Under the pieces are notes generated by a model. It was given only the letters and a program-made list of their open reading frames with translations, was not told where the DNA came from and searched no databases. Of a DNA stretch of 64,000 nucleotides, positions 42,234 through 45,764 are shown piece after piece (positions within the stretch are counted from its first letter, which is position 1; every line of letters starts with the position of its first letter). Both the position numbers and the translations under genes were made by a program. The stretch covers positions 1-64,000 of the forward strand of contig JAPLTX010000007.1 of assembly GCA_026397915.1 (NCBI GenBank), in the 5' to 3' direction. The DNA is from Verrucomicrobiota bacterium (lineage in GTDB: Bacteria; Verrucomicrobiota; Verrucomicrobiia; CAIQCK01).

Positions 42234-43642
42234 GGTTGCAATGGCGGCCGATAGACGCGAATCGCGGCGATGGGAACGGGGCCGTCACCGTTGGGCACGA
42301 GCCGCAAGGTGTGGCGGGCGTTCGCCAGCCCTTGCGCCAGCGTCGCCGCGTATTCCTTTGCCGCGTCGGCGGTCTTGGGCGCGGCATACGTGTCCGTGAA
42401 CAGCGGCTTCACCTCCCACGTGACCTCGTAGTCTTTCGGCAACGCCATCTTCCGGTAGCGCAACGCGCCGATGATGGACCACATTTTCGGTTCGATCACC
42501 ACGCGGCCCGAATTGGAGACAAACCGCTTCGTGAGATCGCCCTGGCCGTCCGGGCCGGTCTTTGAGCCGATGACCTCGAAGCGCAGGATGTTCTTCGCCA
42601 CGTCGCATTCGAGAATCTTCGCCGTCCACTTTTCCAGCATGAGCGGTTTTTCGCAATCAATCCGGTTGATCGCAGGCCACCAGACGCCTGGCGAGGCTTT
42701 GGGGCGCGCGTGGTAGTAAAGCTCCGGGAACTGCGAGGGCGGCTTGCCGTCAATCAACACCTTCGCCGTGCCCGGCGCCGCGTGGCCGGTGTGCGCCGCG
42801 ATCACGTCCACGCGATTGCCCTCGAACACAAGTTCGACGTTGCCGCCCGCGACCGGGATGTCGCGCACCAGGTTCTTCCAAGGCTCTTGGGAAAACTTCG
42901 GGTCGTAACGCAGGTAAGGCATCACCAGCTTCTCGATCAGGAAGCCGCCGAGCTTGTTCGGGTGAACGCTGTCGCCGAGCGTGTCCTTCGGGAAGAGGTT
43001 GTTGGCTTTCAGATACTGGCGGAGCGGCTCGCGGACCTCGGCCAGTTCGCAGCCATACTTCACTGCCAGTTCGCGAATCAGCTTCGATTGCCGCTCGTCG
43101 TCTTCGGCCAGCTTCTTCGTGGCCGGGTCGTCCGGCGAACCATCGCGCGGATGCTCCTTGCCCCAACGGAAATGCGGTGTGCGGATGAGAATCTCCGCCG
43201 TGGTGCGCTGGCGCGTCCGGGCTACGATCTGCTCCAGTTCGCCGCCCTCGACGCCGCCATAGACGTGGAAAATCATCAGATCAGGATAGAACGGGTAGAG
43301 ATCATACTCCGCAGTGTTGATCAACGCGGGCGCGGTATAGCCGCCGATGGCGCGGTTCTCGATCTCCAAGTCGGCGTTCGGATAAGCCTTCCGCAGATTG
43401 TCGGCGACGGCTTTGGACCACGGCCCGGCGGTCACCGACTGGCCGTAGAACAGGACGCGGACGCGGTTGCGCTTTTGCGGCGTGCTGGTCGCCAGTAGCG
43501 TCATCGTCTGCTGAATCTTCGCGCCCAACTCGAAGAGATTGGGCGGCGGAGGCGGCAGTTTGAACGACTCTTCCGACACAGCGCGACTGGTTGCGGCCAA
43601 CAACGCGAGGAAAGCGATCGAGGCGATTCGTCGATGGTTCAT
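42230..43642 (-). CDS. Exported SGNH/GDSL-type hydrolase
   Basis: A 470-residue protein. Signal peptide residues 1-21 (ATSRAVS). The SGNH blocks appear as block I RVLFYGQSVTAGPWS, where the nucleophile context is G-Q-S, and block II IENRAIGGYTAP. The catalytic D-x-x-H is in GDSVHPNKLGGFLIEKL (about residue 230). A beta-sandwich of about 200 residues follows. An esterase or acetylhydrolase acting on a glycan is likely. It is coupled by ATGA overlaps to the gene before (transglutaminase) and after (deacylase). Confidence 0.72.
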   Translation of the reverse strand: MNHRRIASIAFLALLAATSRAVSEESFKLPPPPPNLFELGAKIQQTMTLLATSTPQKRNRVRVLFYGQSVTAGPWSKAVADNLRKAYPNADLEIENRAIGGYTAPALINTAEYDLYPFYPDLMIFHVYGGVEGGELEQIVARTRQRTTAEILIRTPHFRWGKEHPRDGSPDDPATKKLAEDDERQSKLIRELAVKYGCELAEVREPLRQYLKANNLFPKDTLGDSVHPNKLGGFLIEKLVMPYLRYDPKFSQEPWKNLVRDIPVAGGNVELVFEGNRVDVIAAHTGHAAPGTAKVLIDGKPPSQFPELYYHARPKASPGVWWPAINRIDCEKPLMLEKWTAKILECDVAKNILRFEVIGSKTGPDGQGDLTKRFVSNSGRVVIEPKMWSIIGALRYRKMALPKDYEVTWEVKPLFTDTYAAPKTADAAKEYAATLAQGLANARHTLRLVPNGDGPVPIAAIRVYRPPLQP

Positions 43643-45168
43643 GGGCAATTGTTGTTTGCTGCGGGTTCGCAACTCCACGTATAAGCGCGCTTCGGCACGT
43701 CTTGGCCGTCACACTCCAATTCCGGCGTCACGAACATCGTCGTGCGGCGGCGGGCGCTGCGCTTGAGCGGCACCAGTTCCTGCGCGAGGTCGCTCCGCTG
43801 AGTGAACAGCCGCCAGCGATCCATGCGACCGAAAAAGAAGTCGCGGAGCGTGCGCCTCTCGGTGTCGGTCAGACCAGGCACCATGCTGGCAACTTCGCTG
43901 TAGGTGACATCCACCGGCATCCAGCCGTAATGCGGAAAGTAAACTTCAGCCCAAACGTGATCGTTCTTCATGCCGGGCGGAAAGATCGGGCCGTTGTGAA
44001 CGCGCGCCGGGATGCCCACGCTCCGGCAGAGAGCCGCATAAAAGACCGATTGAATGACGCAGTCGCCGATACGTCGCTGCCGCACTTCCTCGGAGGCACA
44101 GCCATAGGTGAACGTCGCGTCGCGCCAGCACCAAACGTAGTTGTATTTCACATTGTCGCAGACCCAGTCGTAGAGCAGCCGCGCCTTGCGGCAGGGGTTG
44201 CTCTCACGGCCGACCACCGAACGCGCAAGCTCGCGCAACGGCTTGGTGAGCGCCATCTGTTGCTCGGAGCGCGTGAAGCGCCGGTAAAGTTCGCTCTGCG
44301 TGTCGTAAGGAGGAATCGCGTCCGGCGCGATCTGGAAATCGGTATGGAAAGCATCGAAGGCTGTCTTCATCTCGATGACAAGGTCGTCTTTCTCCGGCCG
44401 TGGCGCTTCGAGGTAAGCGATACCGACTTGCGCTTCCACGTCCGGGCAGGATTTCAACGCGCCCGCCGGCTGCACTGACACGGTGCGGATGTTCTGGGTG
44501 GCGGGCGTCAGCAGCGGATACGGGAACCACGCGCGCACCAGCCGGCCCGGCGGCAGGTCGGCCTGCTTCACCACGAGCTTGGTGGAAAAGATAAACCGCA
44601 CCGGGTCCACGTAGTGCTGTGGCGCGCCGCCCGCCGCGCGAAGGCGGTCGAGTTTGGCCGACTCGTCGAGAAAAATCTGGGCGAACTTCTGGAAGCCTTT
44701 CGCTGCCGATTCATTGCGGGCCATGAGCGCCGTGTCGAAGAACTGGAGGTTGGTGACGTTGGTGTTGTAGTAGAGCTTCTTGCCGTCCACTTTCCACGAG
44801 AGCAGCCACCCGCGCCGATCCCATTCGGCAGATTCCGATGGCTGGAAACCGCGGTAGGTCTTCGCCAGTTGTTCGCGCAACTGCTCTTTGCTCCAGCAGA
44901 ATCTGCCCTTCATGTCCCCGATGCGCAGCAGTCCTTGCTGGGCGTCGCGCCGCAGCCGCCACGACTGTTTGCCGTCGCAACACTGCAGCAAATCGTGGTA
45001 GATGGTTTCGGCGCGGGCGAATTCACGCGCTTCCTCCAACTTGAGCGCCTTACGGTAAAGTCCCGACAGCGACGACGAGGCCGCCGGTTGTTCAGCGGCA
45101 AATGCAGGGACGGTTGTAAGGAGGCAGATGCAAGTCAGAGCGACGGCGCGAATCGTGATCGGCTTCAT
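43639..45168 (-). CDS. Exported transglutaminase-like (cysteine protease fold) protein
   Basis: A 509-residue protein. Signal peptide residues 1-24 (VPAFAAEQ). A tetratricopeptide-like helical region follows (about 35-80). The transglutaminase-core domain is about residues 330-450. Catalytic Cys is in RIGDCVIQSVFYAALCRSVGIPARV. Catalytic His is in NDHVWAEVYFPHYGWMPVDVT, with the Asp two residues before the last Val-Thr. Cross-linking or proteolysis of exported proteins is inferred. It heads the overlapping transglutaminase-SGNH-deacylase operon and is divergent from the HMA-selenoprotein candidate. Confidence 0.85.
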   Translation of the reverse strand: MKPITIRAVALTCICLLTTVPAFAAEQPAASSSLSGLYRKALKLEEAREFARAETIYHDLLQCCDGKQSWRLRRDAQQGLLRIGDMKGRFCWSKEQLREQLAKTYRGFQPSESAEWDRRGWLLSWKVDGKKLYYNTNVTNLQFFDTALMARNESAAKGFQKFAQIFLDESAKLDRLRAAGGAPQHYVDPVRFIFSTKLVVKQADLPPGRLVRAWFPYPLLTPATQNIRTVSVQPAGALKSCPDVEAQVGIAYLEAPRPEKDDLVIEMKTAFDAFHTDFQIAPDAIPPYDTQSELYRRFTRSEQQMALTKPLRELARSVVGRESNPCRKARLLYDWVCDNVKYNYVWCWRDATFTYGCASEEVRQRRIGDCVIQSVFYAALCRSVGIPARVHNGPIFPPGMKNDHVWAEVYFPHYGWMPVDVTYSEVASMVPGLTDTERRTLRDFFFGRMDRWRLFTQRSDLAQELVPLKRSARRRTTMFVTPELECDGQDVPKRAYTWSCEPAANNNCP

Positions 45169-45282
45169 GGGAGTGCCAGCGTCCTTTCGCCTATCCCTAC
45201 AACGTTTCGCCCGGCCTCTGCAACTCGATAAGGCCCCCGTCACGTGCCGATACACACATATTTCTTTGCGCGCATTTCCATG

Positions 45283-45331
45283 TTGCCGAGACGGACGGAT
45301 ATGGTAGAGTCCAACCGGTTCCCTCGGTTGG
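45283..45331 (+). promoter_or_regulatory. Predicted promoter with inverted repeat at the start site, upstream of the HMA gene
   Basis: TTGCCG (45283-45288), 16-bp spacer, TAGAGT (45305-45310). A perfect 7-bp inverted repeat, CCAACCG/CGGTTGG (45311-45317 and 45325-45331, 7-bp loop), covers the predicted start site. It could be an operator or an early RNA hairpin. The remaining leader is about 40 nt. Confidence 0.4.
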
Positions 45332-45369
45332 GAATGCATAGTTAACAACCAGCAACCACTAGGAAACAC

Positions 45370-45708
45370 ATGACACGACTGCTGAGTCCATTGGTCGCCG
45401 TCGCGCTGGTCGTGGGGTGCTTGGTCGCCACAGAGTTGGCGCCCACCGCCTCCGCAGCCGATGCGGCGAACGGTCGTGTGTATCTGATCGGTATCCCTGG
45501 AGCCACGTGAGGGAGTTGTCCTGCGATCGTCCGTGAGGCGATCTCATCCCTGCCCGGCGTGGCCGAGGTCAAGTTCGATCATGATACACTGACGGCCACC
45601 GTCACCATGAAGGACGATAAGTGCGAGATCACCAAGAAGGATGCCAACAAGGCTCTGACTGCCAAGGGTGACCGCTACAAAATCGGTTCCTTCAAAGCAA
45701 AGAAGTAA
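45370..45708 (+). CDS. Candidate selenoprotein: exported heavy-metal-associated (HMA/MerP-like) protein with in-frame UGA
   Basis: Read through one in-frame TGA (45508-45510, codon 47) the frame gives 112 residues ending at TAA 45706-45708. Residues 1-29 are a signal peptide (PTASA|AD). Residues about 36-105 match an HMA domain: VYLIGIPGAT-U-GSCPAIVREAISSLPGV, then VKFDHDTLTATV and a Lys-rich end. In HMA proteins the loop is G-x-T-C-x-x-C. Here TGA takes the first Cys and Cys50 is the second, so a Sec-x-x-Cys metal or redox site is expected. A SECIS-like stem-loop begins at the UGA. The gene has its own promoter and terminator. Alternatives: a nonsense-mutated pseudogene or a base-call error. 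Coding quality on both sides of the TGA argues against these. Confidence 0.7.
45510..45551 (+). promoter_or_regulatory. SECIS-like stem-loop immediately downstream of the UGA
   Basis: Outer stem A-G-G-G-A (45510-45514) pairs with U-C-C-C-U (45547-45551). A 7-nt bulge follows, then U22-A46/G23-C45 pairs (last two digits). The inner stem is GAUCG (45525-45529) with CGAUC (45539-45543). U45530 is bulged, CC (45531-45532) pairs GG (45537-45538), and the apical loop is GUGA (45533-45536). A bulged U two pairs below a loop carrying GU is the feature recognised by SelB in the E. coli fdhF element. The loop is 22 nt after the UGA, inside the usual range. Confidence 0.6.
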
Positions 45709-45729
45709 CCTGCGGGTGGGTTAGATTGA

Positions 45730-45764
45730 GCCGGAGGCGGCGTGAGTCGCCTCCGGCTTTTCTT
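45730..45764 (+). terminator. Strong intrinsic terminator of the HMA gene
   Basis: A perfect 10-bp stem, GCCGGAGGCG (45730-45739) with CGCCTCCGGC (45748-45757), and an 8-nt loop, followed by TTTTCTTT. It lies 21 bp after the TAA and supports a functional end of the full-length reading rather than a dead gene. Confidence 0.88.

What the first reader, a model, noticed from the sequence alone, without database searches (positions are those of the whole stretch)
45370..45708. Candidate selenoprotein: MerP-like HMA domain with Sec in place of the first metal-binding cysteine
Seen: an ORF of 112 codons with one in-frame TGA at codon 47, a signal peptide before it and an HMA-domain continuation after it. 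The loop reads G-A-T-(TGA)-G-S-C where this family has G-x-T-C-x-x-C. The TAA end is followed by a perfect intrinsic terminator. Known: heavy-metal-associated domains bind soft metals through that Cys pair, and Sec at a catalytic or metal-binding Cys position is the normal outcome of UGA recoding. Inference: a Sec-x-x-Cys metal or redox site secreted to the periplasm. A short gene broken at random by a nonsense mutation would rarely place TGA precisely at a cysteine.
Basis: partly seen in the sequence, partly recalled or inferred. Interest (0 to 1): 0.93.

Follow-up and report, generated by a model that had tools for sequence, protein, structure and literature searches.

The report
Secreted metal-binding domain with selenocysteine
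A small, predicted secreted metal-binding protein of a Verrucomicrobia bacterium very likely carries selenocysteine at its metal site, because the UGA codon there is kept in all seven genomes of its family that were searched, its own included; this would add a new branch to the few selenium-based metal binders described so far.

Summary
In detail: window 45370-45708 encodes 112 codons with one in-frame TGA (codon 47) exactly at the first cysteine of an HMA loop. The selenoprotein reading survived the tests I could run. The genome carries selC, selD, selA and selB side by side. All seven searched genomes of the family hold the gene full length, each with one TGA at codon 47 and no other stop, and with purifying selection after it. 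A stem-loop that fits the published bacterial SECIS model starts 21-22 nt after the UGA; one of its pairs is U-A, G-C or C-G in different relatives. In another family of the class, 25 of 30 matches to a distant homologue (29% identical to the window's protein) also have TGA at the loop; others have Cys. The predicted fold is HMA, nearest to oxidised MerP. The protein scores below the cut-offs of MerP and of the two selenoprotein models it matched in NCBIfam, and MerT was not found (search without a positive control), so MerP is a likeness, not a membership. Sec insertion is near certain by inference; nothing was measured. The likeliest function is a soft-metal trap or carrier outside the cytoplasm; thiol redox is the main rival.

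The parts
45370..45708 (+). Gene of the likely selenoprotein: 112 codons plus TAA, TGA at codon 47
45370..45456 (+). Signal peptide, residues 1-29 (by eye, cleavage after TASA)
   Evidence: Sequence; AAD at the supposed cleavage site invariant in 8 of 8
45493..45654 (+). HMA domain, residues 42-95 of the Pfam match
45508..45510 (+). TGA codon 47, likely Sec
   Evidence: TGA in 7 of 7 f1 genomes
45517..45519 (+). Codon of Cys50, second loop ligand
   Evidence: Invariant in 8 of 8
45525..45543 (+). SECIS-like upper hairpin, 7-bp stem with loop CGUGA
   Evidence: 49 of 49 cells paired, one pair with changes on both sides
45502..45563 (+). Whole SECIS-like region: possible lower stem 45502-45508 with 45557-45563 around the UGA and hairpin
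   Evidence: lower stem hardly varies, so covariation cannot test it
45361..45364 (+). AGGA, possible ribosome-binding site
   Evidence: By eye
45729..45764 (+). Intrinsic terminator, 11-bp perfect stem and T-rich tail; a like hairpin follows the gene in the 6 other orthologues by eye
45317..45335 (+). Inverted repeat in the leader (GGTTCCC..GGGAA..), operator or 5' hairpin
   Evidence: Seen in 7 orthologues, imperfect in some

Best explanation
This gene very likely encodes a secreted selenoprotein: SelB would deliver Sec-tRNA to the UGA at codon 47, guided by the hairpin that follows it, and the finished HMA domain would bind a soft metal between Sec47 and Cys50. Shown: the gene, the UGA at the loop cysteine site, its conservation in 7 of 7 family genomes, the Sec genes in the same assembly, and the conserved hairpin. 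Inferred: that UGA is read as Sec. Predicted: export by the signal peptide, and the HMA fold. Untested: that the UxxC site traps or carries Hg(II), Cu(I), Ag(I) or a similar soft cation outside the cytoplasm; a selenol is ionised at neutral pH and binds such metals more tightly than a thiol (established chemistry, recalled).
For: The genome carries tRNA-Sec (ARAGORN; RF01852 64.0 bits), SelD 398.1 bits (cut-off 125), SelA 496.2 (267.9) and SelB 289.8 (242.25) in one cluster, and that SelD has its own UGA in its N-terminal loop. Orthologues: the 7 f1 genomes among 57 relatives all have the gene full length with one TGA at codon 47. After the TGA: no in-frame stop in 7 of 7, dN/dS below 1 in 21 of 21 pairs (0.145-0.714), 47 amino-acid variants against 67.8 +/- 3.9 if the same substitutions fell at random, 0 of 2000 trials as low. 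The hairpin fits the published bSECIS limits (PMC13188914, passages) and one pair covaries. selB over cut-off in 6 of 7 f1 genomes against 8 of 50 other relatives (Fisher p 0.0005, not corrected for kinship). Wider class: TGA at the loop site in 25 of 30 matches of another family; selB over cut-off in 28 of 30 TGA-bearing genomes, both families counted. Cys occupies the site in other homologues. Model: best PDB match oxidised MerP 1osd, E 6.3e-5.
Against: No protein or selenium was measured. The hairpin's stability is not unusual by itself: about 6% of 3720 random positions in the same loci do as well; the short fold 45505-45560 has z 0.05; and in 2 of 7 orthologues (L011, L013) the lowest-energy fold of the region prefers another pairing. 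'Pairs with a change on both sides' is reached by 281 of 500 shuffles. For 10 of 32 UGA sites, all in one f3 genus, my hairpin rule found nothing good. G005 (75% complete) shows no selB over cut-off. The tRNA-Sec cut-off is not specific here: 13 of 17 genomes pass it, among them G287 and G267 without selB over cut-off. The only database protein found, P0002 (58% identical), has Trp at the site; its DNA could not be read. The neighbours scanned in the window are not metal genes (5 proteins). Lack of stops alone is weak: 20% of simulated neutral sets also have none.
Confidence: 0.72

Rival explanations
1. Same selenoprotein, but the Sec47-Cys50 pair works as a thiol/selenol redox site (selenenylsulfide exchange or peroxide reduction) rather than as a metal ligand pair.
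For: Most of the 51 selenoprotein families of the marine survey are thiol oxidoreductase homologues or thioredoxin-like (PMC2398784, discussion passage). UxxC is the motif of many of them. The neighbours scanned in the window are not metal genes. The best PDB match is the oxidised form of MerP. Some homologues have UxxxC, less usual for HMA metal sites (recalled).
Against: The fold is HMA, not thioredoxin, and Cys homologues keep the GxxCxxC metal loop.
Confidence: 0.2
2. UGA is a true stop and the downstream half is a decayed or unused remnant (nonsense mutation, assembly error or pseudogene).
For: TGA is a real stop elsewhere in the window: 3 of 10 other reading frames checked end in TGA.
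Against: Same TGA in 7 of 7 genomes, purifying selection after it, conserved terminator beyond the end of the frame, covarying hairpin, Sec genes present.
Confidence: 0.02
3. The UGA is decoded as another amino acid (Trp by near-cognate reading, or Cys), not Sec.
For: The one database homologue carries Trp at the site, either a TGG codon or a gene caller's TGA=W.
Against: tRNA-Sec, SelA, SelB and SelD are in the genome; the TGA stands where homologues have a metal-loop Cys; TGA-bearing genomes have selB over cut-off in 28 of 30 cases.
Confidence: 0.03
4. The UGA is chiefly a regulatory switch: with little selenium a 46-residue secreted peptide is made, with selenium the full HMA protein, so that the gene reports selenium supply.
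For: In G005 the gene lies next to a YedF-like selenium-metabolism gene, tRNA-Sec and selD. A conserved dyad in the leader suggests regulation.
Against: In the window's genome the gene is on another contig than the sel cluster. Selection on the downstream sequence shows that the full protein matters. A truncated product is a by-product of any Sec gene.
Confidence: 0.03

Closest known systems
MerP, periplasmic mercury-binding protein (TIGR02052; PDB 1osd, 1afi)
   Same: Signal peptide plus one HMA domain; best fold match 1osd; also found by sequence, after two copper ATPases
   Different: UGA for the first loop Cys; 38.5 bits against a cut-off of 92.55; no mer genes among the neighbours scanned; MerT not found (uncontrolled)
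UxxU metal-binding (seleno)protein, NF041115
   Same: Small metal-binding protein of HMA type with Sec in the metal loop
   Different: 30.7 bits against 95; motif UxxU (review table passage) and a model of 74 positions; here UxxC after a signal peptide
MerT/CopZ fusion-like heavy metal transport selenoprotein, NF045683
   Same: Selenoprotein with a CopZ-like part
   Different: 24 bits against 375; a fusion (model 235 positions), here a stand-alone domain
'Mercuric transport protein MerP' selenoprotein of the Global Ocean Sampling survey (PMC2398784, Table 2 passage)
   Same: A MerP-named selenoprotein was listed in 2008: 2 sequences from 1 sample
   Different: No motif or taxon is given in the passages I saw, so identity with this group cannot be decided
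Cation-transporting ATPase selenoprotein with UxxC (same table; also 2026 review PMC13188914, passages)
   Same: UxxC in a metal-transport protein
   Different: A P-type ATPase, one sequence in the survey table; here a one-domain exported protein

Membership tests
Bacterial selenoprotein | In-frame UGA aligned with Cys of homologues | tested here: met
   TGA in 7 of 7 f1 genomes; Cys at the site in homologues
Bacterial selenoprotein | selA, selB, selC, selD in the genome | tested here: met
Bacterial selenoprotein | bSECIS: loop 3-9 nt, upper stem 4-16 bp, G in the first two loop positions, 16-37 nt from UGA, MFE at most -7.5 kcal/mol (PMC13188914 passage) | tested here: met
   Window: loop CGUGA or GUGA, 7-bp stem, 21-22 nt, -7.6 kcal/mol for the hairpin alone, -27.2 for 45502-45563. 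In f1 6 of 7 reach -7.5 with the hairpin alone (L011 -7.0)
Bacterial selenoprotein | Selenium incorporation shown in the protein | not testable with these tools
   No wet-lab data
HMA domain (PF00403) | Profile match above gathering score | tested here: met
   43.3 bits against 24.8
HMA domain (PF00403) | Ferredoxin-like beta-alpha-beta-beta-alpha-beta fold | tested here: met
   Predicted only: pLDDT mostly above 90 for residues 41-110 in the best of five models; matches are HMA structures
HMA domain (PF00403) | Pair of soft ligands in the first loop (usually CxxC; not demanded by the profile) | tested here: inconclusive
   Second Cys invariant in 8 of 8; the first is UGA in 7 of 7 f1 genomes, so the pair is complete only if UGA is read as Sec
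MerP (TIGR02052) | Score above curated cut-off | tested here: not met
   38.5 against 92.55
MerP (TIGR02052) | MerT / mer operon partner | tested here: inconclusive
   MerT 0 of 7 genomes, but no control genome rang; neighbours scanned are not mer genes
NF041115 UxxU metal-binding (seleno)protein | Score above cut-off | tested here: not met
   30.7 against 95; motif here UxxC
NF045683 MerT_CopZ_Se | Score above cut-off | tested here: not met
   24 against 375

The most novel reading that the evidence does not exclude
Verrucomicrobiota hold an undescribed radiation of stand-alone secreted HMA selenoproteins, with UxxC and expanded UxxxC loops, in which Sec and Cys have been exchanged more than once; these are selenium-armed soft-metal traps outside the cytoplasm, made where the Sec machinery exists.
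Probability: 0.5. Interest if true: 0.66.

Novelty: new member of a known kind. Interest (0 to 1): 0.52.

Why it matters
Most selenoprotein families of the marine survey are redox proteins (PMC2398784 passage); Sec as a metal ligand has been suggested but its role is said to need further work (PMC13188914 passage). A short soluble domain that comes in Sec and Cys forms is a clean system to measure what Sec adds to Hg(II) or Cu(I) binding. It is also a gene that ordinary annotation would cut in two, in a phylum whose name does not occur in the four selenoprotein papers I searched for it.

Tried and rejected
Nonsense mutation or assembly error: rejected, same TGA in 7 of 7 genomes and selection after it. 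Genome-wide reassignment of TGA: rejected, 3 of 10 other window frames checked end in TGA. Membership of MerP, NF041115 or NF045683: rejected on cut-offs. The 'UGSC-containing' selenoprotein of the marine survey shares the letters U-G-S-C; I take it as coincidence: the survey says that protein likely has a thioredoxin-like fold, and its model NF041046 (accession from the review) is not among the 12 families that the window's protein matched at E up to 1.

Dead ends and results that do not help: two class-wide hits with 2 TGA each (G371, G287) proved on reading not to be HMA loops; one with an inner TAA (G048) was not followed. The phylum-wide sample (387 genomes, 26 with a match) listed no match with a TGA besides the window's own; it held neither the other f1 genomes nor G272 among its matches. 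Protein database search gave 1 protein, with Trp at the site; its DNA could not be read because no metagenome scan was allowed. Rfam at gathering scores found nothing in the window. The first dN/dS run and first DNA alignment used six loci on the wrong strand and are void; redone. The list of frames around the orthologues was looked over by eye only; the one shared theme I could name is YedF/tRNA-Sec/selD in G005. Promoter scan upstream: 0 sites. The tree rests on 71 columns with several long branches; I gave it 36 rows, leaving out 6 TGA rows (near-copies and G684) and several Cys or multi-domain hits, and one row (G056_C) fell out because my motif pattern missed it.

Full report
What is there. 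Window 45370-45708 (+) reads as 112 codons plus TAA with one in-frame TGA, codon 47. With Cys in its place Pfam HMA matches residues 42-95 at 43.3 bits, cut-off 24.8. The loop is GAT-U-GS-C. The N-terminus looks like a signal peptide by eye. A perfect 11-bp terminator stem follows.

Can this cell make selenocysteine? The window is part of contig C41 of a 6.17-Mb assembly of 62 contigs, 94% complete. On C39 of the same assembly ARAGORN finds tRNA-Sec (RF01852 64.0 bits), followed by SelD (398.1 bits, cut-off 125), SelA (496.2, cut-off 267.9) and SelB (289.8, cut-off 242.25). SelD here has its own in-frame UGA in the loop CAGUASK, with a hairpin after it. So the assembly holds the pathway and a second likely Sec gene.

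Is the UGA kept? Among 57 relatives 10 genomes have a match. The 7 genomes of the window's family (f1, three genera, own included) all hold the gene over its full length, the six others at 70-91% identity, each with exactly one stop inside, a TGA, at codon 47 in all 7. The six others appear under names in the genome collection: three Verrucomicrobia groundwater MAGs, one Verrucomicrobiia MAG, one 'uncultured bacterium', and one labelled Methylacidiphilum sp., a label I did not check. After the TGA there is no in-frame stop, and dN/dS is below 1 in 21 of 21 pairs (0.145-0.714). Placing the same substitutions at random columns of like base gives 67.8 +/- 3.9 amino-acid variants; 47 are seen, fewer than in any of 2000 trials. 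Freedom from stops alone would be weak: 20% of trials have none either.

Is there a SECIS? In the 7 sequences columns 27-33 pair with 39-45 in 49 of 49 cells; pair 29-43 is U-A in 4, G-C in 2 and C-G in 1. Loop CGUGA starts 21 nt after the UGA (22 nt if drawn with a bulged U and loop GUGA). This fits the consensus given in PMC13188914 (passages). Third positions vary in 4 of 14 codons over the hairpin against 29 of 51 codons after it, as expected if RNA structure restrains synonymous change; I did not test that difference. Cautions: only one pair changes on both sides, a number reached by 281 of 500 shuffles, although the covariation score is reached by only 2 of 500. Hairpin energy alone is matched by about 6% of 3720 random positions. 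For 45502-45563 the fold energy has z -2.04, and -0.99 to -3.74 in the other six; in L011 and L013 the lowest-energy fold uses another pairing.

Coupling to the Sec machinery. tRNA-Sec scores 61.6-65.4 bits in 7 of 7 f1 genomes, gathering score 47; that cut-off is not specific here, since 13 of 17 genomes pass it, G287 and G267 among them. SelB is above cut-off in 6 of 7 f1 genomes (not in G005, 75% complete) against 8 of 50 other relatives. These counts are not independent of kinship. In G005 a 3.6-kb contig holds the selenoprotein gene, a YedF-like gene (100.9 bits, under the cut-off of 110), tRNA-Sec and the start of selD side by side.

Wider group. A class search (384 genomes, 42 with a match) gave one more HMA protein with TGA at the loop: G272, 29% identical, lipoprotein-like by eye, GVV-U-GGC; its hairpin GAGUGUC-CGUGC-GGCAUUC stands at the same spacing. 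Searching G272's own family (117 genomes) gave 30 listed matches in 28 genomes. TGA lies at the loop site in 25 of 30 (24 with a following loop Cys: 14 UxxC such as GVTUAGC, 10 UxxxC such as GMTUGVGC and GLVUAGGC; G684 has no loop Cys) and Cys in 5 of 30 (the two TGAs of G076 lie outside the loop). SelB is above cut-off in 22 of the 23 f3 genomes with a TGA form, so in 28 of 30 counting f1. Of genomes without a TGA form that I happened to test, 3 of 17 and 1 of 4 have it; G291, G335 and G689 have SelB and Cys at the site, so the reverse does not hold. A hairpin of -5 kcal/mol or better in the SECIS position occurs at 22 of 32 UGA sites (7 f1, 25 f3) against 16% of controls; the 10 misses all lie in genus g313, where a stem with a U-U mismatch can be drawn by hand but was not scored. 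A domain tree of 35 rows (26 TGA, 9 Cys) needs at least 2 changes between Sec and Cys by its well-supported branches and 4 by parsimony; it rests on 71 columns and warns of long branches.

Fold and function. AlphaFold2 from 8 sequences gives, in the best of five models (mean pLDDT 78.8; the others 60.0-77.2), pLDDT mostly above 90 for residues 41-110 and the order strand 37-41, helix 50-59, strands 64-70 and 75-80, helix 89-97, strand 107-110: one HMA fold that spans the UGA. Best solved structures by fold are oxidised MerP (E 6.3e-5), then HAH1/MNK1, ZntA and CopZ. By sequence two copper ATPases rank first, then MerP. In 6 of 7 f1 genomes (not G004) there is also an HMA match without TGA in an open frame of 692-955 codons, as expected of P-type ATPases (my reading, not scanned). 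Sec47 and Cys50 are the only conserved pair of this kind: Cys50 is invariant in 8 of 8, Cys17 occurs in 6 and Cys85 in 5 of 8. The simplest reading is an exported one-domain soft-metal binder whose first ligand is selenium. Which metal, and whether it is stored, handed on or merely neutralised, is not known. A redox role is the chief rival.

What is known. The 2008 marine survey lists a 'MerP' selenoprotein (2 sequences, 1 sample), a putative mercuric transport protein and a UxxC cation ATPase (PMC2398784, passages). The 2026 review (PMC13188914, passages) lists MerT, the UxxC ATPase and NF041115 (UxxU); the terms PF00403, HMA, MerP and Verrucomicrob do not occur in its text. PMC9312934 (passages) lists MerT and a UxxU mercuric reductase, no MerP; PMC12013277 and PMC5029168 gave no passage for the terms asked. 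Literature searches on selenoprotein or selenocysteine with MerP, heavy-metal-associated, Verrucomicrobia, bSECISearch, MerT, CopZ or Atx1 showed no title on secreted HMA selenoproteins of Verrucomicrobiota; four of those lists were cut (20 of 546, 10 of 110, 8 of 49 shown; the rest were shown whole: 4, 1, 17, 4 and 2 papers), or three to be exact, and subscription journals are not covered. NCBIfam 20.0 already has two metal-binding selenoprotein models that this protein matches below cut-off, and 8 of 8 TGA-form f3 proteins scanned also stay below every listed cut-off. So: a new member, perhaps a new branch, of a known kind.

Scores. Sec insertion about 0.95 by inference; metal role about 0.75 given Sec; together 0.72. 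Interest 0.52: solid and neat, with a testable chemistry question, but selenoproteins with metal-binding domains were known.

Noticed in passing
L080, L082-L094, L096-L101, L104, L106-L109: Another family of the class carries many HMA genes with TGA in the metal loop, including UxxxC loops; G655 has three such copies.
   Followed up: partly
L098 (G684): Two-domain HMA-like protein with a TGA in each domain (GDGGUGIGK and GGVGUSD) and no Cys following in the first loop; possible two-Sec protein.
   Followed up: no
L009 7142-8203: SelD of the window's genome is itself interrupted by a UGA (CAGUASK); the hairpin behind it, by eye, keeps a pair through changes on both sides in G005 (L048).
   Followed up: partly
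L048 (G005 contig C346): Selenoprotein gene, YedF-like gene, tRNA-Sec and selD lie side by side. A YedF-like match, under the cut-off, occurs once in each of the 7 f1 genomes apart from one weak extra hit in G005.
   Followed up: partly
window 45317-45335: Inverted repeat like GGTTCCC...GGGAACC in the leader of the 7 orthologues, imperfect in some, after an invariant TTGCC and a TGRTA stretch that look like a promoter; operator or 5' hairpin.
   Followed up: partly
P0002: The only database homologue has Trp at the Sec site (GATWGSC) on a 937-base contig; perhaps TGA read as Trp by the gene caller.
   Followed up: no
window 43639-45369 and L009 11314-12354: Transglutaminase-like genes next to both the selenoprotein gene (Pfam) and the sel cluster (by eye); probably chance.
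   Followed up: no
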